Shown here piece after piece: positions 39,526 through 61,563 of a stretch of DNA of 64,000 bases; the first letter of the stretch is position 1, and each line of letters begins with the position of its first letter. The DNA comes from Neoscytalidium dimidiatum (taxonomy: Eukaryota; Ascomycota; Dothideomycetes; Botryosphaeriales; Botryosphaeriaceae). The DNA is taken from assembly GCA_037367355.1 (NCBI GenBank), contig CM074699.1:3844001-3908000 (forward strand), read 5' to 3'. Made by a program: the position numbers and the translations under genes. Below the pieces are notes generated by a model that was not told the origin of the DNA, did not search any database, and was given only the letters and a program-made list of their open reading frames with translations.

Positions 39526-40309
39526 TTAATTATAAATATCTACTTCTATATTATTTTCTCTCTCTCTTTCTTCTACTTCTTTATTATAGCTACTATTATA
39601 GCTATTATTAAAGTTATTTTCTATATTATTCTTTTCTCTTAACTCTCTAATAAGCCGTTTATTCTCTACTTTAGTACTATCTTTAAATACTTTAAAGCTT
39701 ACTTCTTTAAATAAATCTATAGAGAGTAGCTTTAGAGTTAGTATAGATAAACTAAATAGAAATTAAAAAAGAGAGAGTAACGTACCTTTTTTATAGATTT
39801 TAAAGTTATTTCTACTATTATTAAATAGATACTTTACGTCTATAGATAGAATATATCTTAGAATAGTAAAGTCTCTATTATAGTAGTAAATAACGTTTTT
39901 ATTAATCCTTCTCTTAGTAGTCTTTAATATATAAAAAAAGCTCGGTAGCTTTAGATCTAGCTTATAGTATTTAAGGTTATTTCGCTTAAAAAAGACTAGA
40001 TCTTTTAGAGAGATACTATATAAAAATTAGCGTTTAACTTCTCTCTTTCTTTCTTTATTACTACTATTAGAATAGCCGCTTACTCTTTATTAAAAATCGG
40101 ATTTTTATCTTCTCTAACGTTATTCTCGTCTAAGACTTTAATAATCTTAATAGATATATTAAATCTAAGAGTTAAAGTAGTTAGTAATAGTACTCTAGCT
40201 AGATAAATAAAGCGTCTTACTTATAGTTATAAGGTTTTTTAGAAGAAGATTTTTCTATATTAGCCGTATTATTAGATTTTATATAGAAAGTAAGGGGAAG
40301 AATCGGCAT
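39526..40309 (-). CDS. Unrecognised 4-exon gene inside the RIP block (gene A)
   Basis: Model: complement(join(39526..39716, 39786..40015, 40084..40164, 40221..40309)), 591 nt, 196 aa, ending in TAA. Introns of 56, 68 and 69 bp start GTAAGA, GTAAGC and GTACGT and all end TAG; intron phases match and no internal stop occurs. The start codon (CAT on + at 40307-40309) is the only CpA/TpG I find between about 39393 and 40310. The protein has Met only at position 1 and no Cys, His, Gln or Trp, as expected of RIP-purged codons. Exon 3 (230 nt) is open throughout (for example FFKRNNLKYYKLDLKLPSFF); the C-terminus is Lys/Glu/Asn-rich and probably coiled. I recognise no family. It is divergent from the helicase frame across a repeat-bearing spacer. 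Expression is untested. Confidence 0.68.
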
Positions 40310-40760: not shown

Positions 40761-43700
40761 TTTAATAATAATAATATATAAAGACGTAATATCTAAGATT
40801 CTCTTTTTTCCTTTTTTCTTTTTATTAATTAGTTAAAAGAGTTATATCTCTACGCTATTTTATCTACTATTAAATATTCTACGCTAAAATCTCGACTTTA
40901 AGATCTCGATAAAACCCGGCTAAAAAGCTAAAAAAAAGAAGAAGAAAATTACTTTAAGTATTATTATCCCCGCTATTTTAATTATTTATTTAATTCTCTC
41001 TATTTAGAATTAAAGACTAACGTTTTTATAGATTAAATATTAAAGAAAACCCGATAAAAAATATCTATTTTACCTAATAACTTTAAAAACTTTACTAAAG
41101 TAGAGATTCTTTATAAGAATATTAATTATTTTAGTATTCTTAAGGTTTTATTTTGCGCTACGTATAAAATCGGACTAGAATCTAAAAACTCTACTATTAA
41201 ACACGTAGAAAATAAGCATTTAGATATATATTCTAAAGAAGAAATTAAAGAATTAAAAAATAAACTAAATAGTTTACTAGTTAAAGACGCTAAAGAGGTT
41301 AATAAAGTAAAAGATAACGTATATCTTTTTAAAGATTTAGAATTACTAGACGGTTATATTTATTTAAAATACGAGTATCGAACTATAGATTATTCTAATA
41401 TTAAAAAATACGTTAATAGCGTATACGTTAAAGATAAACTTATATCTAGTAATCCTATAGAGTTAAATAATTATTTAAAAAACTATTATAAAGTAGATTA
41501 TATATAGTCTTTATTTAAAAGAAAGCCTATAGTTTATTACTTTATTACTAGTTTTAATAAGCTAGTAAATAGTTATTCTACGCCTAATATAGTAGATCTT
41601 ACTACTAATAAAAGCGCGGTAGAAGATACTATAATTTCTAACTATAAAGAATTAGAAAATAAAGCTAGAACGAATATTTTATATAAAAATAAAGATAAAA
41701 GTCTAGAAGTATCTAGTAAAGACGTAGATAACTTTAATTTTAATAGTCGATTCTATCTATACGTTAAAGATAAAGACGTTAAAGAGCTTTTAAAGCTAAT
41801 AGAGCCGATAGTTATTAAAGACGTCGTTTTATCTAAAGAGAGCTATATCTTAGCTTTCTTAAAACTACCGTAGACTTAGCCTATAAATCTAACGACTTTA
41901 TACCGTATTTAAATTCTACGTATTACGTTATTTAAAGACGGAGAATCCGGTAAGAGAAAATCTACGTAAATTTATTAGTCTAGAGAAAAATACTAAGCCT
42001 AAATACTATAACGTACTAGGCGAGATAATAGTATATATATTTAGAGTATACGCGGCTTATAATAAAAACGAATTAAGCTATAAACAGCCGTTTTTAGCGG
42101 AAAAGATTAAGAATAAACTAGAAATCATTCTAGATTATACTAGGCTAATAGAAGAGAATACGGCTAAAAATAAGAGTAATAAAAATAGAATCGACGTAGA
42201 TTTTAAAACTAAAATAACCGGCTTATTCGACGTAGAGCTAGAAGAGAATAAATCCGTATTTACTCTTTTAGAGTATAATATTCTAGACCTATTCGTAATT
42301 TTACTAAAAGAAAAATTAGTATAAGTATCTTTAAAGGAATACCCGTTATTTAATAGCGTAATTATAACGTACTTTATAATTAAAAGCCTAGACGTTAATA
42401 CTAGTACGTTTAAAGACGTTAAAATAATCGAAAATATAGCTTCGTATATTATATACGACGTTAGACTTTTTTTTATTAGCTATCTAGCTTATAAAGAAAA
42501 GCTTAGTAAAGACGATACTATACTAGATAATAATATAAAACCGAGTTTTACTACTATAGACGAAGAGTTCGTCGACGGTTATAAATATTTAACTATTAGT
42601 AGTAATAACTACTTCGCTAAAATAGCTAGTATTAGAGCGTACGCTAGAAAAATCGTTAGTAATAGAAATAATCCGAGCCGAATTATAGATATAACGCCGA
42701 ATTTAATCGCGGTAAATAATAAAAAGATTAGTATTAAAGATTTAAAAACGTTATTTAATAGTCTATTCGATAGCCTAGAGGATATACTATATAGTAATCT
42801 ACTATTTACTTCTAAAAAAGACTTAAACGTAGACGTTTCTAATATTAAAGATAATAGAATAGATAAGATATTAGACTATTATTTTATAGATTTTAACGAC
42901 GACGAGTAAGATTTAAAGATATATAAAGAATTTTTAATTAGAAAAGTAACTAGAGTAGATACGTTAATTAGTAAAACGTTAGTATCTAAAATCTTAGAGG
43001 ATAATATAGTATTTAAAAAGGCTAAAATAAACGAATATCTAAATAATAGAGCTAGATTTTTAAATTTATTACTAGTAGCTATTTATTTAACGTCCGGCTC
43101 GCCGCTATAAGATACGGAAGTTACGTTATTAAAATATAAAAATAGTCTAGAAGCCGGCTATAGAAACGTAAGCGTAGACTCTAGTATTTTAAATTTAATT
43201 CGAATAGATACTACGTATAATAAAACGTTTAATATTAATAGAAAAGATACTACTAATATACGATATTTACCGCCTCGATTAAGCGAGATTTTAAAGGTTT
43301 ATCTACTAGTATTCGTTCCGTTTTATAACTTCTTAGAGCTTAACTATTTAAATAAAAGCTCTACTAGCTACTATTTATTCGAAGTTAACGATAAGCGGTT
43401 AAACTCTAATAATTTAACTAATACTTTAAAAGATTTAACCGTTAAATATTTAAAAAAAGAGCTCTCTATTAGCGCTTATAGATATTTAATTATTTATATA
43501 ATTAAACGTAGAATTAAACTAGAATACGCTATTAATTTAGACGATAGTAGCTCTAGTAGTAGTAATAGTATAGACGACGTATAAGCTAATTACTCTAGTA
43601 GAATATCTAGAGCGGTCTACGCTAGAGGGTTAGATTTAATCTTATTTAGAGATTATAAAATAGAAGAAGATTCTATTAAATTTAATATTAAATTCTTTAA

Positions 43701-44287
43701 ATTCTTCGATCTAATAGACGTAGACGCGGCTAATTTTAACGAGAAATTCTCTAATAATAAACGAGATAATAGCGTAATTAGCTCTAATATAGAGTATAGT
43801 TCTAAAAAAAAAGCTAGATTAGAGGATAATAGATTAAACGTAAATAAACTAGACGGTTTAAATAGGTTAAAAGATAAAACCGTAGTAATATCTTCTAATT
43901 CTAATAGTAGTAGCGATTTAGATCTAGAAGATAACGCTAATTTAATAGAAAATAACGAAGGTTTAATAGAAAACGACGAAGATTTAATAGAAAACGACGA
44001 AGATTTAATAGAAAACGACGAAGATTTAATAAAAGAACGAGTTATTAATAGAAATTTATTATCTTATAACGTAGATAATAGATTTACTAACGAGAATTTA
44101 GAGCTATATTTAAAAAGATTTTATAATAGCTCTACGGTTAAATTTAAATCTTTAGAACAACGAGAAGTAATTAAAAATATATTAAATAAAGAGCCGTACG
44201 TAACGTATATTAGCGGTACTAGTAGCGGAAAAAGTCTAGTATTTTTTCTACCTAGTTTTATATATTCTAATAGAATTTATTTAGTAG

Positions 44288-44292
44288 TAACG
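44288..44292. repeat. Target-site duplication TAACG, left copy
   Basis: TAACG precedes the left LTR and is repeated at 50964-50968 after the right LTR. Removing the element and one copy restores the helicase frame across motif Ia. Confidence 0.95.
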
Positions 44293-44676
44293 TGTTACGC
44301 CGGGACTCTTTCTGGGGGAGTCGAGGCGCGTCGTCAGGCAGCTTGGGCTTTCTAGGGGCCAATACAGTGGTAGGCAGGGGAGGTTCGTACAATAGTAGGG
44401 TAGGAATCAATTGACAAGTTGACCACGGGGGTCCTATCTACTGTGAACGAGTGTGCTCTATATACTGTAGGAGATGGTGGGTGTGACCGCTGGCCGTGAC
44501 CGCGGTGGTTCTGGTGGTCAGGTTGAGTGGTCAGGCCTTGGCATTGTGACCGCGGTGTTGTTGCTGAGTCATCGGGGTGGCCACGGGCGTCTTGTATCTT
44601 GGCTGTGTTGTGTTGGTGGGTCCGATTTCCTCCAGCTCAGCACTTCCTCTCCTTCCCTTCTTGCTGCGCCGTAACA
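44293..44676 (-). repeat. LTR (3' LTR of the minus-strand element)
   Basis: 384 bp, same sequence as 50580-50963 by eye, TG...CA ends. A TATATA box (+ strand 44459-44464) lies within the LTR and would direct minus-strand transcription. Confidence 0.95.
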
Positions 44677-44762
44677 CTATCCCCCTTCTAGGCAGCTTTC
44701 GGCCCGAAAGCTTTTATAAGGTGGTCTTCCTGCTGTTTCCTTTGTTTCCTTAGTCGCGCACG

Positions 44763-45544
44763 ATGTCGTCAGCGCGGACCCTTCGCCGTCGCAATCAGGC
44801 TCAACGCATTCAATCTTGGGGCGCCTTGCTGACATTCCCTGCAGACGCTGTGTGAAGCGTGGGGAGTCGAGTTGTATTCTTGCAGATTTTTATTCGGCGT
44901 GTGCTTGTTGTGCCTCGGTGGGTCGTACTTCCTGCGACGCAATGGCGAGTCCTCTGGATGCTGAATGTAAGTTATTCCTGTAACGTCTTGACGGGTTGTT
45001 GACTGGTCTCCTAGTTCGTCGTCTGGATAGGGCTCGTGAGTTGCTTCGCCGCCTTGAAGCGGCTGAAGGTCAGGTAGCTGCTGAAGAGGCTGGGGCTGAC
45101 GCTGCTGCGGAGGCTGCTGATCGGGCTGCCGAGGCTGCGGCTGCGGCGGCGCGTGAGGCGCAGGCGGCCGCTCGTCGTTTTCGGGACGCCCAGCGGAAGG
45201 AGCGTCAATTGCGTCGGTTATTGCGCCATGTGGAGCGTCGGAATGCTTCTTTGTTTGCCCGGGAAATGGCTGCCTTGGAAGAGGAGGAACGATTGGAGCG
45301 GGAGGCTGCGGCTCGAGAGGGGCGGGAGCCTCAGGATGTTCCCGCGGGTTCGGATGATGAGACTGGCTTGTCACGTTGGTCTGCCGGGTCTCCGGGCGGT
45401 GGGCGCGCACTCGAGCACGGTGGCGTGCCTGAGGAGTCTCTTGATCGTTATCGAGTGGCCTTGACCCCGCCTGCCGGGTTCGCGTCGTGGGAGGATGCTC
45501 TGGGTTTGGGCGGTCAGGGTTTCGTCGGTGGTATTCCTGGATGA
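44763..45544 (+). CDS. Antisense accessory gene in the chromovirus: Zn2Cys6-like cluster plus coiled coil
   Basis: Opposite strand to gag-pol, between the chromodomain and the 3' LTR. Exon 1 (44763-44966) starts MSSARTLRRRNQAQRIQSW and, after one apparent 1-nt frame slip near 44815, encodes a cysteine cluster with spacing C-x2-C-x7-C-x8-C-x2-C-x7-C, very like a fungal Zn(II)2Cys6 motif. A 48-bp intron (44967-45014, GTAAGT...CTCCTAG) joins it in frame to exon 2 (45015-45544), which encodes an Ala/Glu/Arg-rich coiled coil of about 110 residues (for example RARELLRRLEAAEGQ) and a Gly-rich tail ending at TGA. The intron signals and the cysteine spacing argue that this strand is coding here, rather than the overlapping minus-strand frame. 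Its role is unknown; DNA binding is inference. Confidence 0.58.
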
Positions 45545-48500
45545 GTTCCTCGCAGTTAAGGTAAGAGATTGGTTCCCATGAGGGTTCCCACGGGTTCCCG
45601 GCGGGATCCACTCCTTCCCATTTGATGAGGTACTTGAATTGACCGTCGATCCAGTCTCCATCCAGGATTTTCTCTACGTTCCATTCTTTGTCTGCGTCAT
45701 CGGGGTGTATTTCAAGTTCTGGGTCAGGTTCGGCGTTGCTGTGTGCGGTTCAAGTAACGAGATGTGGAAAACTGGGTGTATTCCCACTTGTTCTGGCAAT
45801 TTGAGTTTAAAGGAAACAGGTGAAAGTTCTTTCTCAATTTGGTAGGGTCCGATTTTCTTGTGGTCCAATTTGTCGTTCGATCGTGTTGTTTTGATGTTTT
45901 TTCTGAGGAGCCAGACTTTATCCCCCTCCTTTAGGGGCGGCGACGCCTGGCGCCGTCTGTCGTAGTACATGGCCATTCGGTATGCGGTGAATTTGATGTC
46001 TCGGGCCAGTTCCTGGTGTAGCTCGCGTAACTGGTCTGCTCTGAGCATAGCTTTTTGGGCGAGTACTTCGCAGATCTGGGGTTCTCCGAAGGCGGTGGGG
46101 TCGAATCCGTAGTTGGCGTAGAAAGGCGTGGTTTGTGTGGCTTCCGTTGATGTGCTGTTGTACGCGTATTGGGCTAGTGGCAGGAGTTCGACCCAGTTGT
46201 TTTGCCTGTAATTCAGGTAGAATCTTAGGTACTGTTCTAGCGTTTGGTTGGTTCGTTCCGTTTGTCCATCGGTTTGCGGGTGTGCCGTTGTTGACATCTT
46301 GTGTTTAGTTCCTAACTTGTGGACCAAGGTTTGCCAGAACTTAGCTCTGAATCGTGGGTCTCGGTCCGTGATTAGTTCCTTGGGCATCCCGTGGTGGGCG
46401 AAGACATATCTGAGGAAGAGGTAGGCGCAGCCTTCTGCTCCGATTTTTGTTGCAAGGGATGAAGTTTGCCCATTTTGTCAAACGGTCGACAATGACCAGG
46501 ATGGCGTTGTGTCGCGCTTTAGTCACAGGGTCTACTGAATTTGGCAGGTCGGTGATAAAATCCATTGTGACCGATTCCCAGGGTTTGGTTGGTGTTGTGA
46601 TGAGCTGTAGTTGTCCGTATGGTGCATGTCGTGCCACCTTGTTTTTTGCGCATTCGTCACATTCCTGGATGACTTTCTCTACTACTTTCCTCATTCGGGA
46701 AAGTAGAAGTGTCTTAAGCCGTTCCAAGGTTCTTGTCATTCCTGGGTGTCCGTGAACTGCGGACTCGTGGTATTCCTTTGTCAGCCGTTTGCGCAGAGGT
46801 GTGGGTACGTAGATTTTTCCGCGGAATAGTATGTTGCCTCTATGGTCTTGGACTAGGTCGGGGTCGTCATGTTCGGGGGTGCCTATTCGTTGAAGCAGTT
46901 CTTGGGATAGCGGATCATTGTTATATTTTCCTTGGATGATTTGTTCCCAAGTGGCGGTGTCATCTTCTTCCTCGTTTACTGCCTCTTCCGTGGTTTCTTC
47001 AAGTGTTGGTATGGGTTCCTCGTCCTGCGGTTCCTCTTCGTCCTCCGGCTCCTGCTCTGGTGTTGGGTTTCGTGGAGGTTCGTCGTCGTCGATGGGGCTC
47101 CTAGCCTTATGATGGGTGCCAGTATTCGTTCTTCCCAGGGTGCGTCGGATTCTTCAATGATTCGGGGCGGTTGGGGCCTAACGTGCCGTCGTCATTTTGT
47201 CGTAGTACTGCTGGTGATAGTTCTGGCTTTCCTTCCACGTGGTCGGCTCTGCGGCTAAGTGCGTCGGCCTTGCCGTTTTCACTTCCCCGCGAGTGGATCT
47301 TGAAGTAGAAGGGGGCGAGTTGTTCTGCCCATCGTACTTGTCTTCTGTTTAACACCTTGGTGGTTGTGAAGTATCCCAGGTTCTTGTGATCCGAGTATAC
47401 CGTGATTTCGTAGTTAGCTCCCTCAAGGTAGTGTCGCCATTCCTTGAACGCTGTGACGATCGCAAGCAGTTCTTTGTCGTGTATCTCGTAATTGAGCTCG
47501 GCGGGTGACATTTTGCGAGAGTAATACGCGATAGGGTGTAATCTTCCCTCGTCGTCTGGCTGGCTGAGGGTAGCGCCAATGGCATAGTCGGATGCGTCAG
47601 TTTCGAGGTAGAGTGGCTTGTCAGGATCGAACATGAGGAGTACCGGCGCTTCTACGAAGGCCCTTTGAGTTGATCAAACGCCTCTTGTTGGGGTGCTTCC
47701 CAGGTGAAAGGGTATTTTTCGGGTGAGTCGGATTAGGGTTCGGCTACATGCGAGTATCGTTTGATGAATCGTCGGTAGAAGTTGGCAAACCCTAAAAAGG
47801 CTTGTACTTCTTTGACGTTCCTTGGTTCTGGCCACTTCAGGATGTCTTCCACCTTTTTTGGGTCCATGACTATTTTTCCTGGTTCGATGATAAAGCCTAG
47901 GAATTCTACCCTTTGGGCATGGAAGGTACATTTTTCTGGTTTGACGGAGAGGTTGTATTCGAGTAGTTTCTGGAGGACTTTGGATACATGTTCCTTGTGT
48001 TCTTCAAGGGTTTCTGAGTAGATCAGGATGTCGTCGAGGTAGGCTGTGCAGAATCGGTCCAGATATTCTCGTAGGACGTGGTTGAGGGCTTGGAATGTGG
48101 CAGGGCGTTGGTAAGTCGAAAGGCATTACCAAGTACTCGTACAAACCGTATCGAGTTCTGAATGCGGTTTTCCATTCATGTCCTTCCTTGATTCGGATAA
48201 GGTGGTACCCATCCCGCAGGTCTAACTTGGTGAAGAATCGTGCCCCGGAGAGGCGATCCCTAGTTCATCGATGCGGGGTGAGGGTAGCGGTCTTTGATGG
48301 TAATGTCGTTCAGGGATCGGTAATCCACACAGAGGCGTAACTTGCCTCCGGGCTTTGGTACGAAGAGGACGGGGAATCCTGCTGAGGATTGAGAGGGTCG
48401 GATGTATCCTTCTTCAGTAGTAAGTCCAAGTGTTCCCTCATTGCTTGTAACTCCTTTTCCGACATTGGATATAGGGGTCCAAATCGGGGTTCAGTGCCTG

Positions 48501-49410
48501 GTTTCAAGTTGATCTCGTGGTCCCATGGTCTGTGTTCCGGTAGTGCGTCTTCGATCTTTTCTCTGAAAATTTCCTTGAACCGGTGGTATTCCTTAGGAAC
48601 GCCATCAAGGTACTGTTCGTGTATCCTGGTGGGGTCATCTCCTCCCACGGGTGTCGGGTAGTCTGGTTTTTCTCGTCTGGTGGCACTAATCTGTCGGGTT
48701 CTTTCTTTGTTTGTAGTGGTGGGGCGATACCACATCATTCCAATTGCTTGCCCCTTCTTTCGGGTCCTTTCCAGCGCAGCTTTCGAAATTAGGCTTACGT
48801 GGGTAATCGGTTCGGCTATGGTGCGTGGTTTCCATTCTGGTTCTTGGTTTCGTTCTCTGGACTTGAGGGTAATTCCTCCATTGTCCCAATCGTATTGTAT
48901 TTTCCATTTCTTCTGCCAAGGGATGCCGAGAATGACATCATACTTGGGGATCTTGGTAACGTCTAGACAGATACGTTCCCTGTGGTTTTTGTATTCGAGG
49001 TCAGTTTCGGGGTTTCGATGATTACCTTTCCATCTCCAAAGGAGCTGGGGATCCATCAACAGTTCTCAGCTGATATGGTTGGTCCTTTTCTCTGGGTTTT
49101 AGGTTGGCTTTTTCTGCAAATCGGTTTGAGACGTAGTTCCTTGTGATGCGGAGTCGATGAGGGTGAGCGCTCGGCGTCCATTGATTTTTGTCACGACAAC
49201 CCAGTGGTTCCCGTATTCTGCGGAGTCTCCTTTGCTTTCTGGTGGGTGTCCTGTGGTTTTTCCGGTCGATGCTGCTATGGTCCTGTGGGGCGGGGCCTCG
49301 CCTGCTGTAGCCCCAGTTCAGTAGGCGTTTCTAGTTTTTGGGTGGTACCCGCTGATGTTCTTAGCTTCCTGGTGAATGGGGAGGCTTCGATGCTACAAGT
49401 GGACCAGTGG
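44769..49410 (-). pseudogene. Chromovirus pol: protease, RT, RNase H, integrase, chromodomain (frame-broken)
   Basis: Minus-strand order. Protease with a LIDS active-site box near 49150-49160. RT region from [20 protein letters not shown] (about 48450) through the YLDDILIYS catalytic box (near 48020). RNase H from [18 protein letters not shown] (47634) with ELLAIV and ALSRRAD. Integrase with the zinc-binding Cys pair CDECAKNK, VTMDFITDLP and the DRDPRF and GQTERTNQTLEQYL core blocks. Chromodomain with YLIKWEG and the paired PWEPSWEP near 45580-45640. At least seven frameshifts separate these blocks, usually one base in a homopolymer, so no full polyprotein is encoded as given. The frame runs on for about 265 codons past the chromodomain to 44769, but that tail overlaps the antisense gene and may not be real. 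Confidence 0.85.
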
Positions 49411-49416
49411 ATGGTG

Positions 49417-50524
49417 TCATGGTTGGGGTCTCCGGTCGTCCTTCAGTAGCCGAGGTGGTTTTCTTGTCGTTGGTTCGCTGGTTGCTGGTTCGTTTGTCTG
49501 GGCAGTTTCTGCTGATATGTCCGTGCTTTCCACAGTGGAAGCAAAGACCCTTTCACGCCGTCGCTGTTCTTCCTCCGGCGCCAGCCGAGGTTTTCGTCGT
49601 TGGTTGGCATCTAAGTCCATGGGGTCCCCGGGTAGGTTGTTTCGAGGTTGCGCGGTGTTGGCCGAGTATCGGGTTTGGCCTGTCTCTTGTCTGAAATTGA
49701 ACAGTTGTTGGTCGACTCGGATGGCCGTGTCGATGGTCTCGCTAAGGTCCTTGGGTAATCCGGTGCGGGCGAATTCGGCCTTCACATTGTGCTTTAGGCC
49801 CTTGTAGAAGATGTATTTGAGGGATTGGTCGTTCCAATTGAGGTAGGAGGCGAGCATGCGGAATTCCGTGACATATTCCGAGACTGATCGGGTTTGTCGG
49901 AGGTCCTGAATTCGAAGGGCGGCCTCCTGCTCCTCGTTCTTGCTACCAAAGGCTTGTCTGATTGCGTCGGCGAAGCGATTGTAGTTGGCGAACAGGCTAC
50001 TGGTTTCCGTACGTGGGATGGCCGAGCGGAAATCCTTTCGATAGGTTCGAACCACCGTGCTGCGTTACCTCGGAGGTAGGTTCCTGCAAAGCGGACCCTT
50101 TCTCATCGTCCTTGAATGATGCTTTGTAGAATTCGAAGTAATTCTCTAGTTGGGCCAGGAAGTCGTTGAGCTTACGCCGATCCCCATCGTAGGTGTCGGG
50201 GTCTTGATCTTTAGTTTGGTGTTGTGGGGTCGATTCTGATGTCGCGGGGGTGGCTGGGGTGGAGGGCCGCATAGTACGGTTGACAGTAAAGGCTTGTCCT
50301 CGAATGAAGTACTCCAGAAGGACTTGGCCGCAGTCCTCACTGGCGTTCTCTGGTACTCTGGGTCCGTTGATTGCTCGACTCAAGGAGGCTATGCCCGAGG
50401 AATATGCTTCCGAAATGAGCAGCCTCATGTTAAGAGCTGGGTTTCCAGGGATCAAGGGACGGATTGACTGAAGCTGTTCCTCCTCCGTCGGAAGGTTGTT
50501 CCTGATTTCGGTCCAGGATGTCAT
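49417..50524 (-). pseudogene. Chromovirus gag with CCHC zinc knuckle (frame-broken)
   Basis: Starts at ATG 50524 (MTSWTEIRNNLPTEEEQ). Capsid-like blocks: DGDRRKLNDFLAQLENYF, GNAARWFEPY, FRMLASYLNWNDQSLKYIF. A nucleocapsid knuckle C-x2-C-x4-H-x4-C (CFHCGKHGHISRNC) is encoded at about 49500-49545 but in a different frame from the capsid part. Two or three one-base slips in homopolymers separate the pieces. Confidence 0.85.
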
Positions 50525-50579
50525 GGTTAGTAGTTTTCAGGGTGGGGTTACCTCCGGTGCCTAAGAAAGGTGGTCAAAG

Positions 50580-50963
50580 TGTTACGCCGGGACTCTTTCT
50601 GGGGGAGTCGAGGCGCGTCGTCAGGCAGCTTGGGCTTTCTAGGGGCCAATACAGTGGTAGGCAGGGGAGGTTCGTACAATAGTAGGGTAGGAATCAATTG
50701 ACAAGTTGACCACGGGGGTCCTATCTACTGTGAACGAGTGTGCTCTATATACTGTAGGAGATGGTGGGTGTGACCGCTGGCCGTGACCGCGGTGGTTCTG
50801 GTGGTCAGGTTGAGTGGTCAGGCCTTGGCATTGTGACCGCGGTGTTGTTGCTGAGTCATCGGGGTGGCCACGGGCGTCTTGTATCTTGGCTGTGTTGTGT
50901 TGGTGGGTCCGATTTCCTCCAGCTCAGCACTTCCTCTCCTTCCCTTCTTGCTGCGCCGTAACA
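50580..50963 (-). repeat. LTR (5' LTR of the minus-strand element)
   Basis: 384 bp, same sequence as 44293-44676 by eye. Immediately inside it (50579 downwards) there is no TGG-type tRNA primer site; the sequence starts CTTTGACCACC on the minus strand, and a near-complement (GTGGTCAA) occurs within the LTR, so self-priming is a possibility. Confidence 0.95.
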
Positions 50964-50968
50964 TAACG
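50964..50968. repeat. Target-site duplication TAACG, right copy
   Basis: Matches 44288-44292. Confidence 0.95.
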
Positions 50969-53819
50969 CCTCGCGTTAGTTTAAAAGAAGATCTATTAAG
51001 AAGAGCTAAAGAGTCGAATCTTTTAGCCGAAATATTCGACGCTAAAAACGAGCCTAATTACGAGCCTACTAGTAAACTTATATTCTTAAGCGTAGAAGAT
51101 TTAAGTAACTCTAAACTACTAGCTTATCTATTAAATCTAACCGCTAATAAAATAGAATTTACCGTTTATTTCGACGAAATACACTTATTTTTACTCGAAG
51201 AGGATTTTAGATTCTACTTAAAAGAGGTATCTAAAATAGTAGAATATACTAAACAACTAGTTTTTTTAACGGCTACTCTACCTACTAAATTACTCGATTT
51301 ACTAGAGCTTAAATTTAATTTAACGTCTAATAAAATTATTAGAGGTAGTACTACGCGTACTAACGTTAGTTATAATCTAATAGATAGTACGGGTAAAAAT
51401 AAACTAGATTTAATAAAAGAGTTATTAAATAAGCTCTACGATAGCTTAGAAAACGACGAAAAAATTATAATCTTTTACTCTACTACTAAAGAAGTAATTA
51501 AGATTAGTAAAGAATTAAATATTATACCGTACTATAGTAATTTAGAAAATAAAGAGAAGAATTTAGACTTATTTTTAAATAACGACGACTATAAAGCTAT
51601 AGTAACTACTAACGCTTTAAGCGTCGGTATAGATAAATCTAATATAAGATATTCTATATACGGTAGTATATTTAACTACTATATATTAGCTAGTTTAATT
51701 AATATAGAGTAAGAAATCGGCCGTATAGGCCGAGATAATAAGTATAGCGAGTCGTTTATTATAGAAGACTTTAATAAAATAGAATATAAAGAGATAGACT
51801 CTAATATAACCGACGATTATAATAAACGGCTAGAAAACTTTAAAATAGAAGACTATAATAAAGTAGCAGATCTATTTAAAGAGAAAACGTGTTTAAGACG
51901 TATAATAGAGGCTTATTTTAATAATAAATACGTAAATAATTATTCTATTAGCGTAGCTAAGTGTTATTTATATAAAAATAGAGAAGAAAATATAATCTTA
52001 ACGGTTAATAAAGAGATAAATAGAGATAATAATAATAAAAGCGGACTTTATAAACTATTAAATAAAGTAGAATACCTTAAAAATTATTGTTATTATTGTT
52101 TATTATTTAAAGGCTACGAAAATAGCATTAATCACACGATTTTTACGTGTAAAATAGACGAAAATAGAGTTTATTTTAGTAAAATTAAAGAGCTAGAGCG
52201 CGAGATTAAGCGTAATAAATTATTAGCTAAAGGTAGCTACTATTTTAGATGTTTTTTACCGAGTAAAATATGTTATAATCGAGATAATTATAATACTCCG
52301 TATAGTAACGAAAACGTAGTACTCGGTTTAAATATATTAGCTATTTCTCTTTATAATAAAGATATATTAGCTAATAAAGAGTTAAATAATAACGTAGATA
52401 AGAATAATCTAAGCGATTTTAACTACGTAGCTAAAATAATAGCTAAAAAGATAGAATTCTATAATATAGACGCTATAAGAGCTATTAAGATAATAGAAGA
52501 TATAGATTTAAATAGACTAGAAGATTTAAAAATAGATACTAATTTAGAAGATAATAATAGTACTAGTAGCGAAGACGACGAAGATAATAGCGAAAGACGA
52601 GGATAATAGCGAAGACGACGAGGATAATAGCGAAGACGACGAGAATAATAGCGAAGATAACGAAGATATTAATATAAATATAAATAATAGTAAATCTTTA
52701 AGCTCTAGTATAGAGGATTTAAACTATAACGTTTATAACTTTAAAAATACTTCTACTACTAGTAGTAGTATTAAAGAGAATTTGAATAAAGTATTTAATT
52801 CGACTATAGCTCCGTCTATTATAAATAGCGAAGAGATTAGAAATAATAAAAGTTTAAAATCTAATATAAAAGATAACGAAAATAAAAAATTAGATATAAA
52901 TAAAGAGAAAGAGATAAGTAAAGATTTTTATTTAGATATAGATACTTATAATTTATTACCGAGTTCTATAGAGGTTTTAAATTTAGAATCTAGTATTAAT
53001 AACTCTAACGAGTTAAATATAAACGAAGATAAAAATAGCTCAGTAACTATTCTATAGATTTAGATCTAAAGATTTAGAGAATCTTAACGTAATAGTAGAT
53101 AAAGAAGAAGATAAGTATAAAAAAACGTTAAAAGAGAAGGAATTTAATAGAGAAATAATAAAATTATTTGATCTATTAGAATCTAAACTAGATTATATAG
53201 TTAAAGACTGTTTATTATATCGATTAAATAAGAACTCTAATTATTATATAAAACCGCACTTTACTTTAAAGTGTAACGTATATATAAAAGAATTAGAAGA
53301 GTATTCTAATAGTTTAAAAGAAGCTAATAGGCTTTATAATAAAACGTTCGGTAAAACGTCTAATTTAGACTTAATATCGTCTACGAAAAATTTAGAAATA
53401 TGTACGGATTGTTTTTTACCCGTATATATATGCTTAAATTATAGATCTTACTTTACTAGTAAGCCGACTAAGTGTTTAATAGGGTTAAACTTATTAATTT
53501 TATTAATTACGCTTTATAAACGTCGTTTAAGTAGCGTTATATCTAGCTATTTATATCTAGATTTTTACGTTAAAAATACCTCTATATTTCTTAATTATTT
53601 AAGTAATAAATTAAGTAATAAATATCTCTATAATAATATTATAGAAGGTAGTAATAGTCTAAAGATCTTATTAGACGTAGAGTTAGATACTATAAGAGAA
53701 TTACTAGAATTAAAAGACGGTTCTAACGAGTTATAAAAGACTTATTTAGTTTATATAAAATAGAGTAGTTAGATTAGAGTATGAAGATATTAAAGTTAAG
53801 ATTTAAGTCGGTTATAAAC

Positions 53820-54243
53820 GTTAGTTAAAGCGGCTATTTTAAGAGTTCGATCTTTAGCGGGCCCTAAAGTTAACGACGGGGGCCCTAATAAATACGTTTA
53901 GATAGTCTAAAACGCGTCTCTTAACGCGTAGAAAAAAGTGGCTTATTTAGATTTTTATATTAGTGGCGTTTAGAACGGCTATTTTAGTAGCCCGAATCTT
54001 TAGCGGGCCCTAAAGTTAACGACGGGGGCCCTAATAAATACGTTTAGATAGTCTAAAACGCGTCTCTTAACGCGTAGAAAAAAGTGGCTTATTTAGATTT
54101 TTATATTAGTGGCGTTTAGAACGGCTATTTTAGTGGCTAGAATCTTTAGCGGGCCCTAAAGTTAACGACGGGGGCCCTAATAACTACGTTTAGATAGTCT
54201 AAAACGCGTCTCTTAACGCGTAGAAAAAAGTAGCTTATTTAGA
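53820..54243. repeat. Satellite array (about 146-bp unit), near-identical copies
   Basis: Anchors at 53857, 54003 and 54149. The first two units differ by only a few bases in one short stretch, much closer to each other than units of the left array, yet they already carry the RIP changes. Confidence 0.88.
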
Positions 54244-54253
54244 ATTTTTATAT

Positions 54254-54778
54254 AGGAAATACTAAAGACCGAATAGATAGAGACTATTCTAGGGAAGAGA
54301 CGTAAGGTAAAAGGTAAAGGACTAAAAGAAAGGTATATAACTAGGTAAATCGGTAAGATATCTTACGAATAATACTATAAATGCTAAATAGTATAAGTAA
54401 CATTATTTCCTTTTATGTTAAAATTAACTTTTTAGCTAGATAACCTTCCCCTTTAGGAAATACCTATATGGGAGGTCACGGGTTCAATTCTAAGTAGGGA
54501 AGAAAAAGATTTTCTTTTATTATTTCTTTATTATTACTAACTTTTCTATAATCGAATTTTATTTATTTTTCCGTATACCGGGAGGGTTAGGTCCCTAAGC
54601 GAGATACGAGGCACTCTTAAAAGAATAAACTGAAAAGATATCTAGAAACACGGTATAAACGTAGTAAATACGTAAATACTCGTAGATAGGACCGCGGCCT
54701 AGCCGCCGTCTCTAATAGTCTAAGACTCTAGAAGAACGTTAAACTAAATAAATAAATAAAAATAATAAAAATAAATAG
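54254..54778. mobile_element. SINE-like insertion in the satellite
   Basis: The distance between adjacent satellite anchors (54149 and 54832) exceeds the repeat period by about 536 bp. The extra segment contains a Pol III B-box-like GGTTCAATTC (54481-54490), ends in an A-rich tail (AAATAAATAAATAAAAATAA, from 54746), and is flanked by near-identical ATTTTTATAT (54244) and ATTTTTTATAT (54779), as a target duplication would be. No A box or complete tRNA is clear. Confidence 0.5.
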
Positions 54779-55250
54779 ATTTTTTATATTAGTAGTAGTA
54801 GAAACGGCTATTTTAGTAGCTAGAATCTTTAGCGGGCTCTAAAGTCGATAACGAGGGCCCTAATAAATACGTTTTAATATTCTAAAATACGTTTCTAAAC
54901 GCGTAGAAAAAAGTGGTCTATTTAGATTTTTTATACTAGTAGCGGTTAGAACGGCTATTTTATTAGCTAGAATCTTTAATGGGCTCTAAAGTCGATAACG
55001 GGGCCCTAATAACTACGTTTTAATATTTTAAAATACGTTACTAAACGCGTAGAAAAAGATAGCCTATTTAGATTTTTTATAATAGTAGCGGTTAGAACGG
55101 CTATTTTAGTAGTTAAAATCTTTGTAGACTATAAACTCTATAATAAAAGCTCTAATAAATACGTCTAAATATTTTAAAATAGATTTTAAAGTATAAAAAA
55201 AAGATAGTCTATTTAAATTTCTCTTAGTAGTAGTAAAAACGACTATTCTA
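54779..55250. repeat. Satellite array (about 147-bp unit), continuation
   Basis: Anchors near 54832, 54979 and 55125; the last unit decays into unrelated AT-rich sequence before gene B. Confidence 0.85.
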
Positions 55251-55445
55251 ATAGTTAAAAATTAAAGTAAATTAAATATTAGTTAGTTATTATAATTAAA
55301 GTAACGTTAGTTAAAAAATATTTAATTTATTCTATCTAAAATCTATTTTAATAACGCCTAAGAAATCTATATAAAATTCTAATCTATTAATAATCTAAGT
55401 TAGTTATTATTCTCCTTAGTATTTAATTAGTTAGACTACTTACTC

Positions 55446-56911
55446 TTAGAGAATAGAATTAGAAAAATCTAAAAGCTTATCCCAACTATTATCCTCTACT
55501 AAAGAGGGGCCTAGAGAGTAGAAATATATTAATAAAAAATAAACTAACTTACTTAGTAGAAAAGAGTTATCTAAGAAGTCTATAAGATAAAAATTAGTTA
55601 TCTACTAGTAGTCTACTAATATTCTATATTAATTAAACTTACTATCTTCTTTTAACCCTATAAAACTATCTAGAACCGGCGAGTTATAGAATTCTAGTAA
55701 GATTTAGTTAGTATAAGTCGGTTTTTTAACCGATTAAATTAGAGATTTACTTACTTTTCTCTTCTAGATTAAAGTTATTAATAGGGAAATCTCTATTAAT
55801 AAAGTCTTCGTCTAGAAAATAGTCTAAAGATAAATAAATTAGCTAATAAAATCTTAATTTAAGTAGAATTAAGAGATAAAACTTACTTTCTTCTTCTAGA
55901 TTAAAGTTTCTACTAGTATTACTAGTAAAACTAGTAGAATCTAGTAGAAATTAAGTTAGTTTTAAACGGCTAGAGTCTAAAAATATTAGTAGTAAACTTA
56001 AACTCTCTCTACAAAGAGAAAAAGTATCTAATTAATTAGTTAGTAAAGACTCTACTCTATAAATATACTAAGTACTTACTTTTAATAGAGTCGTCTAGCT
56101 CTATAGCCTCGAATATACTCTTAGAAAGAGTAAGCCACGCCTTAAAAGTCGAGAGGCTAGATAGATAAAAATATTAGTAGCTAAACTAAAGGGTAAAACT
56201 AGAAGTAAAAGCTAAAACTAAGATTACTTACTTAAAAGCTAGGCTTTTAGACGCGGAATCGCTCTTAGAAACTCGAGTACTAAAGCTATTAATAGACTAT
56301 ACTAAGTAGTCTCTTAGAAAGATAAAGAGTATCTAGAAAAGAATTAAAAAAGTAAGAAAATAAGCTAGAAATAGTTAAAATTAACCTACTTTTCTCTTTC
56401 TTTAGAGGTTTTCTCGCCGGAGCTCTTTCGATAGGGTACGTAGAGCTCGTTTCTATTAAAATAATTAGTAAAAGTAGGTAAATAGCTAGAAAATAAGCTA
56501 AAAAACTAAGAACTTACCCGATTTTTACCGAGTTTTTTAGCCTATCTTTAGGCTCGGCCGGTTTAGCTTTAATATAAAGCTTTCCCCTATAGTATAGTTA
56601 GTAGACGGACCTAAATAGAGCGTAAAATAAGAGAAACTACTGGAAAAAAACCGAAAACCTACCTAAAAAGCTTAGAATTCTTAGGTCTTCCTAGTCTTTT
56701 TCTATATATTTAGTTAGTATTAGCCGGTTCTCGAGTTTTAGTAGGCGGGAATAGTACTTACGAGATCGAGGACGAAGAGATAGCCTCGCTAGATAGATAG
56801 TTAGCTAGATTTAGCCGAAAAATAGCGGGTTTTTTTTTAGAAAAAATCGACTTACTTTCTCTTCGTAGAGGGAATAGAGACGTAGTTAAAGGTTCCGATA
56901 GTAGAAGACAT
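55446..56911 (-). CDS. Unrecognised 12-exon gene inside the RIP block (gene B), AT-hook-like motif
   Basis: Model: complement(join(55446..55510, 55553..55579, 55643..55693, 55755..55811, 55887..55940, 56080..56156, 56232..56285, 56390..56452, 56518..56586, 56663..56701, 56762..56788, 56856..56911)), 639 nt, 212 aa. All eleven donors are GTAAGT or GTAGGT, all acceptors TAG; introns 42-139 bp; frame is open from ATG to TAA. Residues 29-38, KRLGRPKNSK, resemble an AT-hook. NFNLEE occurs at 140-145 and 159-164, each at an exon end, suggesting exon duplication. Met only at 1; Trp at 110 and 201; no Cys, His or Gln. Of five CpA/TpG in the locus, three are the start codon and the two Trp codons. The acceptor of exon 8 is least certain (a better pyrimidine tract lies upstream but leads to a stop). 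No family recognised; a nuclear DNA-binding role is inference. Confidence 0.7.
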
Positions 56912-57254
56912 CGTAGTAGAGGTCGAAAATCGCGTAAAGTTGATAGATAGTCGTAGATAGTCGTAGTTAAGAGTAGAAGTCTCTTAAAGCTAAGAAAAAG
57001 AAGAGAAAAGCCGGCTTCTTTTATAGACTAATTAGAGGGCGGATTTAAGCGGGCTTAAACGGATCTAGACGGAGTTAAATTAGATTTTTAATAATTAATA
57101 ATTAAGAAAACTTAATATTATTAATCTAGAAGTCTAGATCTTAGAAAAGAGGGGATAAAGATAAGAGTAGAGTTAAAAGTAAAAGTTAAAGCTAAAAGAC
57201 TAATAAAAATTAGATAAAACTAACTTTATAGTTTAATATTATAATTATCTAATA

Positions 57255-57345
57255 GATAGAGTAGATATCGCGTAGTCTAGTTATTAAAATTTAAATTATA
57301 ACTAGTAACTTCTAAGATTTCGAGTTCGATTCTTATTAGGAAAAG
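57255..57345 (+). other. RIP-mutated tRNA-like/SINE head
   Basis: An A-box-like TAGTCTAGTTA (about 57273-57283) is followed about 40 bp later by a good B box, GAGTTCGATTC (about 57322-57332). The spacing fits a tRNA-derived Pol III promoter. Stems cannot be closed well, as expected after C-to-T and G-to-A changes. Function as a tRNA is unlikely. Confidence 0.4.
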
Positions 57346-57405
57346 TTTAGACTTTATTATCTAACTTAACTATCGGATATTTAAGCTCTAGAATTTAAAT
57401 TTCTT

Positions 57406-57670
57406 AAAAGTAAATTATAGTTTTTTATTAGAATAGACTAGAAACTTAAGATTTAAATAGATTAAAGTAGTAAAATAGCGGTTTTAGTAGAGATAACTAA
57501 TTTACGTTATAAATTACTTAGTAAAACTACTAATAGAGAAAAGTAAATTATAGTTTTTATTAGAATAGACTAGAAACTTAAGATTTAAATAGATTAAAGT
57601 AGTAAAATAGCGGTTTTAGTAGAGATAACTAATTTACGTTATAAATTACTTAGTAAAACTACTAATAGAG
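57406..57670. repeat. Tandem duplication of about 133 bp
   Basis: 57406-57538 is repeated at 57539-57670 with one T indel as the only difference I see (both start AAAAGTAAATTATAG and end ACTACTAATAGAG). The near identity shows duplication after RIP. Confidence 0.9.
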
Positions 57671-57889: not shown

Positions 57890-58640
57890 CTTATTAAATA
57901 CGTAAAAAGAGACGACTTATTTAGATTTTTTATACTAGTAGCGGTTAAAATAATTATTAAAGTAACTAAAATCTTTAATTAACCGCGTATAAGCTAACGG
58001 AGGCCTTAGTAGATACGTTTTAATATTTTAAAATACGTTTCTTAACGCGTAAAAAAAGATAGTCTATTTAGATTCTTTATACTAGTAGCGGTTAGAACGA
58101 TTATTTTAGTAGCTAGAATTTTTAGCGGGCTCTAAAGTTAATAACGGGGCCTTAATAAATATATTTTAATAGTCTAAAATACGTCTCTTAACGTAGAAAA
58201 AGTAGTCTATTTAGATTCTTTATATTAGTAATAGTTAGAACGACTATTTTAGTAGTCTAAATCTTTGGGCTTTAAATTTAATAACGGGGCCCTAATAACT
58301 ATATTTTAATATTCTAAAATACGTTTTTAAACGCGTGAGAAAGATAGCCTATTTAGATTCTTTATATTAGTAGTAGTAAAAATAGCTATTTTAGTAGTTA
58401 GAATCTTTAACGGGCTAAAAGTCTATAACGAGGGCCTAATAAATATATTTAAAGATTCTAAAATACGTTTCTAAACGTATAGAAAAAGTAGCCTATTTAG
58501 ATTTTTATACTAGTAGTAGTAGAAACGACTATTTTAATAGCTAGAATCTTTAGCGGGCCTAAAGTCTATAACGAGGGCCTAATAAATACGTTTTAATAGT
58601 CTAAAAATACGTTTCTAAACGTATAGAAAAAAGTAGCCTA
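57890..58640. repeat. Satellite array (about 147-bp unit), right end
   Basis: Anchors near 57977, 58124, 58269, 58410 and 58553. The final unit stops abruptly at about 58640 against unique coding sequence. Confidence 0.85.
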
Positions 58641-61563
58641 TAGCGGCTTTGGAAAGAACGGAAACGGTAGCATCGGCAGCGAAGGTGGAAGCGGCGGCCG
58701 ATACGGCATCAATAAGCTCGCGTCCGTTTTCGCCTACGGGAAACGACGACAAGCGGCCAAAGACGCCAGGAACATCCGGGGGAGACACGACCAATTCTGT
58801 GATCGCCAGTCCGAAGGGGTACGCACAGTCGGTCAGATCCTTTAAATCTCTCAATCATTACGACTACCAACACTACGACGACCCCAACCGCCGCTCTTCT
58901 TCCCAGACTGCGCGCGCCGACCTCGACTTCTCCTACCTATACAAGCCTAAGGTCAAGCTTGGCCCTCGGCCTACCCAGGAACCGCACCCACACACTACCG
59001 AGTCCAAAAGCGCTAAACTGCCGGCCAGCTTGAAGGCGGCTGTGCGGAATAAGGGGAGCTCCTCTAGGCCCAAATCCAGGGATTCCAGTATGGTGCCCAG
59101 TATAGGCCTCCCGCCACCGCCGCCGATTCCTACGATATCTGAAATGCCTGCCACTGCTCCCTCGCGACCAACATCCAGCCCTGGCTTGAAATCGAGCTCG
59201 AATTCCGTCAAGTCGCCAGGCATCACGCCGGAAAAACAGCGTTTGATGAGGGCAGTCGAGCTTCGCAAAAAGCAGAAGGCGGCGCAGCTGGCGAGACAAA
59301 AGTCGAATGGAAACCCCGAAGACGCCGACGCCACGGCTGGCGCCGAGGAGAAAGCAGAGCCAGCGGAGCCAGCGGAACCAGCGGAGGAGAAGGAGCTAGA
59401 GGCCGCTGTGAGGGAAGGAGAGGGCATTTCGTCGCATCGCGAAACGACGTCTAGCACGGAGTCTGGCTCGACTTTAAAGCCTGATGACGCTCCAGGCACG
59501 CCCGACCACACTAAGGCTGACTCCGGCGTGCAATTGATGATCAGTGGAGCCGGAGATGAGGAAGACGCTCGGCCTCCCACTCCTGTCGCGTCCTCGCCAA
59601 TATCGGTTCAGGAGTCGTCCAACCCGTCCTCTACGCGCCCTTCGTCCATCTCAGATGGTGGCGAACGCAAGGAGCTACTGGATACGGAAGACAAGGCGGA
59701 GGATGCGCTGCCGCATGATGAGGCTAGGGAACCTTCGCTCGGTGTTCCATCGGCGGCGGTTCCAGCATCAGCGCGGGCCACCGGTGCCGAGCATCCCAAT
59801 CAGGATGTTTCATCATCTCCTGACAGGGGGGGCACGGGAGAACATCAAACAGAGGCCGCCAAGGGCCCGGAAGCATCAGAGGATATTACCACGGCGCTGC
59901 CGTCTTCTTCTTCCCTTCCAGAACGTCGCTCCACCACGAAGAGCAAGCGTCGAGTTCCCGTCGACCCCATCCGTGTCGACCCGGACGCGGAAAGTTCCGA
60001 CGACGACTGCGACTACCTCTCCGACGACTCCCTAATGGAGGAACTGCAGAGCGCAACGGTCGAAGAGGCCAAGCCAATGTCCGTATCCAAGTCGCCCATC
60101 ATGCCTATTTTCCCTCGCCGGAAATCTCAGGCCTCGACCCTGTCAACCAAATCGGCTGAGCAGCGCGTTAACTCAAACCCTCTATCCCTTTACAGGACGG
60201 CTACCCCAACCCGGCTTTCTCCTTCACCGGAGGATCAGATCGGCGTCGGCCAGCGGTCTTTATCCGCATCATATGCGAGTGAGGCGCAGCCAAAAGCTCC
60301 GCTAGTCAAGAAGAGTAATGTCTCGTCAGGCATCTCGCAACGCATTAAGGCTCTCGCAGAAAAATCCAGCAAGGATGCTGCTCCGGTTCCGATACCCAAA
60401 GTCGGCTACACCCCGGAGAAAAACTCCATCAGCATTGCTCAACGCTCGAATTCTTTCAGGGTATCGCACTCCTCTTCTGGCCCAGACAGCAAGCACTTGA
60501 AACGTCTCAGCAAATCCTCGTTCATTTCGGTCCCGCCCTAGAGCGCCCTACTCTCGGGGCGAGAATTCAAGCGAAAGCATCCAGGCTGTCTACAACAAGA
60601 ATGCGGATAACAAGACTGAGTCGGTCACTGTTACCGCTCGGATCATTCGCCGCAGACACCCAGCCAAGAGCTTGATGCCTCGCCCTTAGATCTGCAACAG
60701 AGCCCGATCACTATCGATCGCAACAAGTCCGACGCTACACCTCCTCCGTCAATCGTCGTCCCTCCTCCCGCTGAAGAATCGACTTTGTCACCTAAGTCTG
60801 GCGATGCTTCTCCCGCGCAACCCTCAAATGCGAATCTTGAATCCCCAGCGCAAGCCCTGCCTCGTTCGTCGTCGGAGAGCAGTTGGCGTTCATTCGGTCG
60901 CCGGCGTAGTGAAGCCACCTCACCGCCTCCTATGCCGCGAAGCCAATCTGTCACTAGCCTCGACAGCACGGCAACCGAAGAGGGAGAGGAGAAGAAGAAG
61001 GGAAACAGGGCGAGCAGATTACTCAAGCGTATGAGCAATAGCCTTTCCTCAAGCAAAAAGAGCTTGAACCAAATGATGAGTTCTGCAGTGCAGGAAGAGC
61101 TTCCGGAACCTATCCAAGAGAAGAAGGAATCGCAACCTGGGATTGTGATCGGCGATCTGAATGTTCAGTTCCCCGATACCCTTGTGAGCGCTCTCTTCTC
61201 CATCGCGAGTTCTGCAGTGCTAACAGAGCCACAGCTATGGAAGAGAAGATGGGTCGAGATCGACGTTCAGGGTAACATTGTCCTCTCCCTATCTAAGTCA
61301 AACGAGGTATTTCATGGTTACATATCGACACGATAAGGTTGCGCTAACCAAATTAGCAGCAGTCAAAAGGCATCACCAAGCGCTACCACCTCAGCGAATT
61401 CCAGTCTCCCTTCGCGCCAGACCAAGAACGTCAGGAAATGCCAAACAGCGTAATTCTTGATTTCCACGACGGCCGCACGCTGCAGTGTGCTTGTGAGAGC
61501 GCCTCGGGACAGGTTCACGTTCTTGGCCTTCTGAAGGAGGCTCACAAGTCCTGGACTCAGTGA
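58640..61563 (+). pseudogene. 5'-truncated, frameshifted Ser/Pro-rich fungal protein with PH-like C-terminus
   Basis: Coding sequence begins at the satellite junction with no start codon: the frame is closed by TAG at 58634 inside the repeat. The first 630 codons (to 60541) are Ser/Pro/Glu-rich, with TPEKQRLMRAVELRKKQKAA, a coiled segment, SDDDCDYLSDDSLMEELQSA, and GISQRIKALAEKSSK, which I associate with a conserved but uncharacterised fungal family. Frame changes near 60540 and 60655 separate this from the rest (KSDATPPPSIVVPPPAEEST onward). The last part has two good introns (61184-61234, 61307-61362) and a PH-like domain: VIGDLNVQFPDTLLWKRRWV, VLSLSKSNE, KRYHLSEFQSPFAPDQE, NSVILDFHDGRTLQCACESA, ending at TGA 61561-61563. 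The family looks cytoskeletal or scaffold-like, but the function is unknown. Confidence 0.72.

What the first reader, a model, noticed from the sequence alone, without database searches (positions are those of the whole stretch)
55446..56911. Intact 12-exon gene inside a RIP-saturated block, with CpA/TpG surviving mainly in the start codon and Trp codons
Seen: eleven introns with GTAAGT/GTAGGT donors and TAG acceptors join twelve open pieces into 639 nt without a stop, ending at TAA. Only five CpA/TpG remain in 1.47 kb; three are the ATG and the two TGG codons (W110, W201), the other two lie in introns. Neighbouring helicase sequence in the same block lost Trp and Gln codons to TAG/TAA. Random RIP decay would not preserve exactly these codons, so the pattern suggests purifying selection on a gene that RIP keeps hitting. 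Splice signals and codons free of CpA/TpG (no CAG acceptor, no GTATGT or GTGAGT donor) would then be an adaptation to RIP. An AT-hook-like motif and an exon-end duplication (NFNLEE) add interest.
Basis: partly seen in the sequence, partly recalled or inferred. Interest (0 to 1): 0.88.

Follow-up and report, generated by a model that had tools for sequence, protein, structure and literature searches.

The report
Split gene kept through saturating RIP
Near a chromosome end of a fungus, a many-exon gene and its neighbouring helicase gene seem to have stayed readable although the fungus's repeat-mutating defence changed almost every letter it could, sparing mainly letters that encode irreplaceable amino acids.

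Summary
The minus-strand locus 55446-56911 is a real intron-dense coding gene in RIP-saturated DNA near a contig end. Eleven GTARGT donors lie on one strand (shuffle mean 1.0, maximum 6). Exons 1-5 chain open from the ATG; exons 7 and 9-13 chain open to the TAA. Corrections: the inferred ancestor has 13 exons; 639 nt is one of 10,800 open chains; exon 6's acceptor is unsettled; RIP itself yields GTAAGT and TAG, so no splice adaptation is needed.

The strongest support lies next door. Five RIP-saturated copies of a telomere-linked-type RecQ helicase carry 15 stops in 6,464 aligned codons, and each of the seven stop sites is a sense codon in another copy. A nearby RIPped retroelement has 89 stops in 1,181 codons. 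RIP-able residues were kept at 12 of 15 columns invariant in homologues, 8 of 14 majority and 2 of 59 variable ones.

Best reading: RIP-hardened chromosome-end genes, kept by past purifying selection. The four long helicase copies are broken now, and the small gene's activity is unproven. A weak EST1-type match (25-28 bits with exon 8, 17-19 without) is only a lead to function.

The parts
56856..56911 (-). exon 1 with start ATG
   Evidence: donor GTAAGT; open from the ATG
56762..56788 (-). exon 2
   Evidence: branch-point CTAAC before TAG, donor GTAAGT; all three frames open
56663..56701 (-). exon 3 (KRLGRPKNSK, AT-hook-like)
   Evidence: only one open frame, in phase
56518..56586 (-). exon 4; C4 copy lacks 23 nt here (frameshift)
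   Evidence: only one open frame, in phase
56390..56452 (-). exon 5
   Evidence: two open frames, one in phase; donor GTAGGT
56232..56285 (-). exon 6, start uncertain (56285 or 56279; branch-point-supported acceptor at 56333 gives stops)
56080..56156 (-). exon 7 with retained TGG (TpG at 56137)
   Evidence: only one open frame
56004..56027 (-). exon 8; GTAAGT donor in C4, scrambled here
   Evidence: raises the EST1-type score from 18.9 to 26.3 bits
55887..55940 (-). exon 9 (ends NFNLEEE)
   Evidence: only one open frame, in phase
55755..55823 (-). exon 10 (ends NFNLEEK)
   Evidence: only one open frame, in phase
55643..55693 (-). exon 11
   Evidence: only one open frame, in phase
55553..55579 (-). 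exon 12
   Evidence: only one open frame, in phase
55446..55510 (-). exon 13 with retained TGG (TpG at 55484) and stop TAA
   Evidence: only one open frame, in phase
57020..57025 (-). TATAAA 109-114 nt before the ATG, possible core promoter
   Evidence: sequence match only
41061..44292 (+). RIP-saturated RecQ-type helicase, first part (start codon lost in this copy)
50964..53736 (+). same helicase, continuation after the retroelement insertion
44293..50963 (-). unRIPped LTR retroelement inside the helicase; its RIPped copies on C3 and C4 served as the control
   Evidence: LTRs 99.7% identical over 388 bp, TAACG on both sides

Best explanation
The finding is one of two protein genes of a repeated unit near contig ends whose DNA is RIP-saturated: a RecQ-type helicase on the plus strand and, tail to tail with it, a short gene of 12-13 exons on the minus strand. 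RIP removed nearly every CpA/TpG that could go without loss of function. Selection on working copies kept the reading frames open and kept RIP-able codons where the residue cannot be replaced: start Met, zinc-ligand-like Cys and His, helicase-motif Gln and His, and perhaps two Trp in the short gene. The result is a RIP-hardened gene: few targets are left, so another round of RIP seldom kills a copy, and when it does it hits those last codons, as in today's helicase copies. Shown here: saturation, donor cluster, open frames in phase, a sense codon opposite every helicase stop, retention at conserved residues. Inferred: recurrent RIP as the agent, selection as the cause, and any function (a DNA- or RNA-binding role at chromosome ends, suggested only by a weak EST1-type match and the neighbouring helicase). 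Present activity of the short gene is open.
For: Short gene: 11 donors against 1.04 expected; 8 of the 11 exons tested (exons 6 and 8 left out) have a single open frame and all chain in phase; shuffled exons 1-5 are open in 5 of 4000, exons 7 and 9-13 in 0 of 4000; ordinary ORFs RIPped in silico leave 0 of 10,000 stop-free 213-codon stretches. Start ATG and both TGG kept although TGG's context is RIPped in 111 of 116 and 62 of 64 cases in the retroelement copies. Helicase: 15 stops in 6,464 aligned codons, seven sites, each sense in at least one other copy; frame-breaking gaps private to single copies; 89 stops in 1,181 and 64 in 610 codons in RIPped retroelement copies; 32 of 47 remaining CpA/TpG sites in Cys/His/Gln/Met codons, 31 of 37 without sites that are CpG in another copy; kept residues at 12 of 15 invariant, 8 of 14 majority, 2 of 59 variable columns (invariant versus variable p = 1.7e-9). 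P0003, a 1,678-aa helicase homologue, has 1 Met and 1 Trp.
Against: No transcript or peptide data. No homologue of the short gene (201 and 508 candidates, none at E <= 10) and no diverged paralogue, so the need for its two Trp is untested. No open chain with introns of 40-120 nt, and exon 6 avoids stops only with an unusual acceptor. All C4/C5 differences fall inside the gene, one of them frame-breaking. Codon-position signal is weak (46 or 158 of 2000 nulls reach it). The four long helicase copies have 2-6 stops, some frameshifts or insertions; two have lost the ATG; pairwise differences are mostly nonsynonymous. Three invariant Cys/His columns were lost in every copy that covers them.
Confidence: 0.72

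Rival explanations
1. A dead relic: an intron-rich gene killed by RIP. Its splice signals survive because RIP products of ordinary signals are still splice-like, and the open frame owes much to freedom in choosing acceptors.
For: 10,800 open chains but none with introns of 40-120 nt; exon 6's branch-point-supported acceptor leads to stops, and C4 is frame-broken; all C4/C5 changes lie in the gene; no homologues.
Against: A RIP-killed gene should hold about 4-7 stops per 100 codons, as the retroelement does. With acceptors fixed, 8 exons have one open frame each and all chain. It may still be a relic that died recently, after long maintenance.
Confidence: 0.17
2. No selection was needed: RIP spares some sites by context or local chromatin, and the spared sites happen to be in these codons.
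For: Remaining sites are few in the short gene (5 in the window copy).
Against: In the retroelement copies every NCA context is changed in 82-100% of cases, CCA in 43 of 46 and 111 of 116 on C3 and 22 of 23 and 62 of 64 on C4. Kept helicase sites coincide with residues invariant in homologues, and the frame stayed open as well.
Confidence: 0.05
3. A spliced non-coding RNA: the introns are real but the open frame is incidental.
For: Splice signals are the clearest feature; the codon-position signal is weak.
Against: One open frame in phase across eight exons; EST1-type match above the curated cut-off in 5 of 5 full-length or near-full models with exon 8, and in 0 of 6 shuffled or reversed controls.
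Confidence: 0.06

Closest known systems
Telomere-linked / telomere-associated RecQ helicases of ascomycetes
   Same: The neighbour gene has the OrsD, DEAD and Helicase_C domains, is repeated, and several copies lie near contig ends. Low-GC and RIP-affected families of this kind are in print: PMC4522978 (passages) and repeat X26 of PMC3017866 (passages), which also counts 26 putative functional RecQ gene models.
   Different: Kept open at RIP saturation, with RIP-able codons left mainly at conserved residues; I did not see this described in the passages read. Two copies lie 50 and 118 kb from contig ends.
FoTeR telomere-associated retrotransposons of Fusarium oxysporum (PMC12857005; abstract and passages)
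   Same: Chromosome-end repeats with some copies under purifying selection and others decaying by RIP, beside telomere-linked helicases.
   Different: Retrotransposons; RIP detected by moderate indices, not saturation; no residue-level retention in the passages read.
EST1-type DNA/RNA-binding proteins (Pfam PF10373)
   Same: Exons 6-10 match the last third of the domain at 25-28 bits when exon 8 is included.
   Different: First two thirds of the domain absent; many tiny exons; 17.2-18.9 bits without exon 8, under the cut-off of 22; no pairwise similarity to this genome's own member beyond chance.

Membership tests
EST1-type DNA/RNA-binding protein (short gene) | PF10373 above the curated cut-off of 22 bits | tested here: inconclusive
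   25.3-27.9 bits in five models with exon 8, 17.2 and 18.9 without it, 21.3 for exons 7-13 alone; 0 of 6 controls hit
EST1-type DNA/RNA-binding protein (short gene) | full domain, profile 1-282 | tested here: not met
   only profile positions from 170 or 196 to 275 are matched
EST1-type DNA/RNA-binding protein (short gene) | sequence similarity to a family member | tested here: not met
   local alignment to the C1 protein: 115 of 500 shuffles reach the score; no hit in the protein database or the PDB
AT-hook protein (short gene) | AT-hook recognised by a profile | tested here: not met
   no AT-hook family at E <= 10; KRLGRPKNSK is a resemblance only
Telomere-linked RecQ helicase (neighbour) | DEAD and Helicase_C domains, RecQ-like | tested here: met
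   38.5 and 43.9 bits; best PDB match ATP-dependent DNA helicase Q1, E 2e-13
Telomere-linked RecQ helicase (neighbour) | N-terminal OrsD-type domain | tested here: met
   27.2 bits against a cut-off of 26.6
Telomere-linked RecQ helicase (neighbour) | subtelomeric position beside telomere repeats | tested here: inconclusive
   C3, C4 and window copies within about 31 kb of contig ends, C6 about 50 kb, C5 copy 118 kb; telomere repeats were not looked for
RIP-mutated repeat | CpA-to-TpA change on both strands of repeated DNA | tested here: met
   90-98% of CpA changed on both strands between unRIPped and RIPped retroelement copies; gene and helicase present in 3 and 5 copies
RIP-mutated repeat | mutation during the sexual cycle by a RID-type methyltransferase | not tested

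The most novel reading that the evidence does not exclude
RIP-hardened genes: coding sequences that have lived through so much RIP under selection that every dispensable CpA/TpG is gone, leaving proteins built from about 15 kinds of amino acid plus a few irreplaceable Met, Cys, His, Gln or Trp. Such a gene is nearly immune to further RIP, and its leftover CpA/TpG are a natural map of essential residues. The 13-exon gene beside the helicase would be a second hardened gene of the same chromosome-end element.
Probability: 0.55. Interest if true: 0.88.

Novelty: new variant of a known kind. Interest (0 to 1): 0.78.

Why it matters
RIP is usually taken to kill duplicated genes. If genes can be kept open through saturation, RIP-saturated DNA, often masked before gene prediction, can hold real genes; RIP becomes a saturating mutagenesis read out by selection; and repeats can escape a genome defence by running out of targets. 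RNA-seq and population resequencing would test it directly.

Tried and rejected
Rejected or downgraded: the 639-nt model as the solution. Context protection of TGG codons. Splice signals as an adaptation (products of RIP on ordinary signals). An alternative frame for exon 5 and the start of exon 6, in phase with C4's shorter exon 4 and with two in-frame stops: it adds only about 1 to 2 bits to the EST1-type match, so homology does not decide it. Similarity to the genome's own EST1-type protein: not above shuffles.

Led nowhere: protein-database searches with two spliced models, PDB, NCBIfam. The own-genome protein search gave 29 matches, all in the three loci; the own-genome EST1 family search found two places on C1 and not this gene. 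Literature: nine searches; I saw no report of genes kept open at RIP saturation in the listings or in the passages read. Subscription papers are mostly not held. Editing of TAG codons in the sexual stage was considered from memory and not tested. No structure was predicted.

Choices that bear on counts: branch-point acceptors were picked by eye. Exons 6 and 8 were left out of the shuffle test. Helicase stops were counted in C3's frame, so frameshifts in other copies do not add stops; past codon 1393 the C5 118-kb copy is broken and its few aligned codons are unsafe. Columns with fewer than three homologues were left out. A 4-nt gap in the alignment is my join's leftover of the target-site duplication.

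Full report
What is there. The window is C5:3844001-3908000 of an unnamed 43.8-Mb genome and ends about 18 kb short of a contig end. Two blocks, about 38-44 kb and 51-58 kb, have 23-34% G+C per kb and 0-14 CpA/TpG per kb, against 138 per kb in five ordinary ORFs. The gene is on the minus strand, 56911 to 55446. The DNA search found two more copies: an identical one on C3, about 21 kb from a contig end, and a 96% identical one on C4, 1.6 kb from the start.

Is the gene real? Eleven GTARGT donors lie on the coding strand, against a mean of 1.04 and a maximum of 6 in 2000 dinucleotide shuffles; TACTAAC occurs 4 times against 0.56, though plain CTAAC is not enriched. In about 67 kb of mostly RIPped DNA, no 1.5-kb stretch outside the three copies has more than 3 donors on one strand. 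With acceptors placed by branch points, exons 1-5 read open from the ATG and exons 7 and 9-13 read open to the TAA; exons 3, 4, 7 and 9-13 have one open frame each, in matching phase. Shuffles of exons 1-5 are open in 5 of 4000 cases, and of exons 7 and 9-13 in 0 of 4000, best of three frames. Five ORFs of the window, RIPped in silico at rates near those measured here, leave 0 of 10,000 stop-free 213-codon stretches. The codon-position signal is weak: 46 or 158 of 2000 stop-free nulls reach it.

What needs correcting. With introns of 30-200 nt there are 10,800 open chains, so openness alone is cheap; with 40-120 nt there is none. The reason is exon 8: C4 has a 24-nt exon with a GTAAGT donor, which the window copy has lost, so the window must skip it or use a weak donor, both in frame. 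Exon 6 cannot start after its branch-point-supported acceptor without stops; starts at 627 or 633 keep the frame and make intron 5 104-110 nt long. C4 also has a 63-nt intron 11 (42 nt in the window) but a frame-breaking 23-nt deletion in exon 4. Each copy thus has a defect, and by parsimony the ancestor had 13 exons and an open frame; this is inference. The only substitution between C4 and C5 in the gene is synonymous in this frame. All C4/C5 differences over 55200-57538 fall within the gene, which is no sign of constraint now.

RIP measured in place. An LTR retroelement at about 44293-50963 (Ty3-type by my reading of its frames; no profile test) is unRIPped here, with LTRs 99.7% identical, and has RIPped copies on C3 and C4. 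Between them 90-98% of CpA is changed on both strands, 22-29% of CpC and 16-20% of CpG; the CCA context that TGG codons present is not spared. Its frames hold 89 stops in 1181 aligned codons on C3 and 64 in 610 on C4; some frames overlap.

The neighbour settles the principle. Tail to tail with the gene lies a RecQ-type helicase with OrsD, DEAD and Helicase_C domains in five copies: C3, the window (split by the retroelement), C5 at 118 kb, C6, and a fragment on C4. Over 1621 codons these have 4, 6, 2, 3 and 0 stops (1621, 1612, 1383, 1618 and 230 codons aligned). The stops fall at seven sites, and each site is a sense codon, six Gln and one Arg, in at least one other copy. Frame-breaking gaps, three in C6 and a cluster in the window copy, are each private to one copy. 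The saturated ancestor was therefore open here; C3 against the retroelement gives p = 2e-29. Of 47 CpA/TpG sites left in any copy, 32 are in Cys, His, Gln or Met codons; without ten sites that are CpG in another copy, 31 of 37. On C3 it is 21 of 29 against 407 of 1470 in ordinary ORFs (p = 1e-6). Against five homologues at 28-42% identity, RIP-able residues are kept in at least one copy at 12 of 15 invariant columns, 8 of 14 majority columns and 2 of 59 variable ones. Kept residues include the Gln before EIGRIGR, the His of DEIH and a Cys-Cys-His-Cys cluster; lost ones include two Cys invariant in the homologues. P0003, 1678 aa long, has 1 Met and 1 Trp, against 33-43 of each in P0006 and P0007, which suggests an intact hardened helicase elsewhere; its DNA was not seen.

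What the short gene may do. With exon 8, exons 6-10 match the last third of Pfam's EST1-type domain at 25-28 bits (cut-off 22); without it 17-19 bits; 0 of 6 controls hit. The genome's own EST1-type protein shows no similarity beyond chance. A role at chromosome ends is a guess, at about one in three.

Present state. The four long helicase copies have stops, some also frameshifts or an insertion, two have lost the ATG, and pairwise differences are mostly nonsynonymous (27-60 codons against 6-33). So the evidence speaks for past selection at RIP saturation and perhaps decline now. That the retroelement is unRIPped suggests that RIP has not acted there since it inserted.

Known or new. RIP-affected telomere-associated helicases are in print (passages). 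The kept-open-at-saturation pattern I did not find in nine searches.

Noticed in passing
window 44293-50963: An LTR retroelement, nearly identical LTRs and no RIP, sits inside the RIP-saturated helicase and is strongly strand-skewed; RIPped copies of part of it lie on C3 and C4.
   Followed up: partly
window 39526-40026 (-): Two stacked open frames of 78 and 87 codons, one stop between them, in RIP-saturated DNA; possibly a third gene or transposase relic.
   Followed up: no
window 38236-39415, 53831-54253, 54776-55181, 58018-58641: Arrays of a related repeat of about 143-147 bp flank and separate the RIPped genes.
   Followed up: no
L003, gene positions 358, 894-917 and 1376: The three complex differences between the C4 and C5 copies; two look like changes at hairpin-forming sequence (my reading), so assembly error or template switching is possible.
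   Followed up: no
protein P0001: A helicase homologue poor in Met (6) and Trp (2) but with 86 Gln in 1423 aa, as if only TpG and not CpA had been lost on the coding strand.
   Followed up: no
L040, around C5:117400-118000: The helicase copy at 118 kb is broken by a short unRIPped stretch (42% G+C, 43 CpA/TpG in 500 bp).
   Followed up: no
window 12168-17399, 33898-35061, 4907-6409, 1646-3052: Polyketide synthase, beta-lactamase-like, Zn2Cys6 and dehydrogenase ORFs in the ordinary part of the window, perhaps a metabolite cluster.
   Followed up: no
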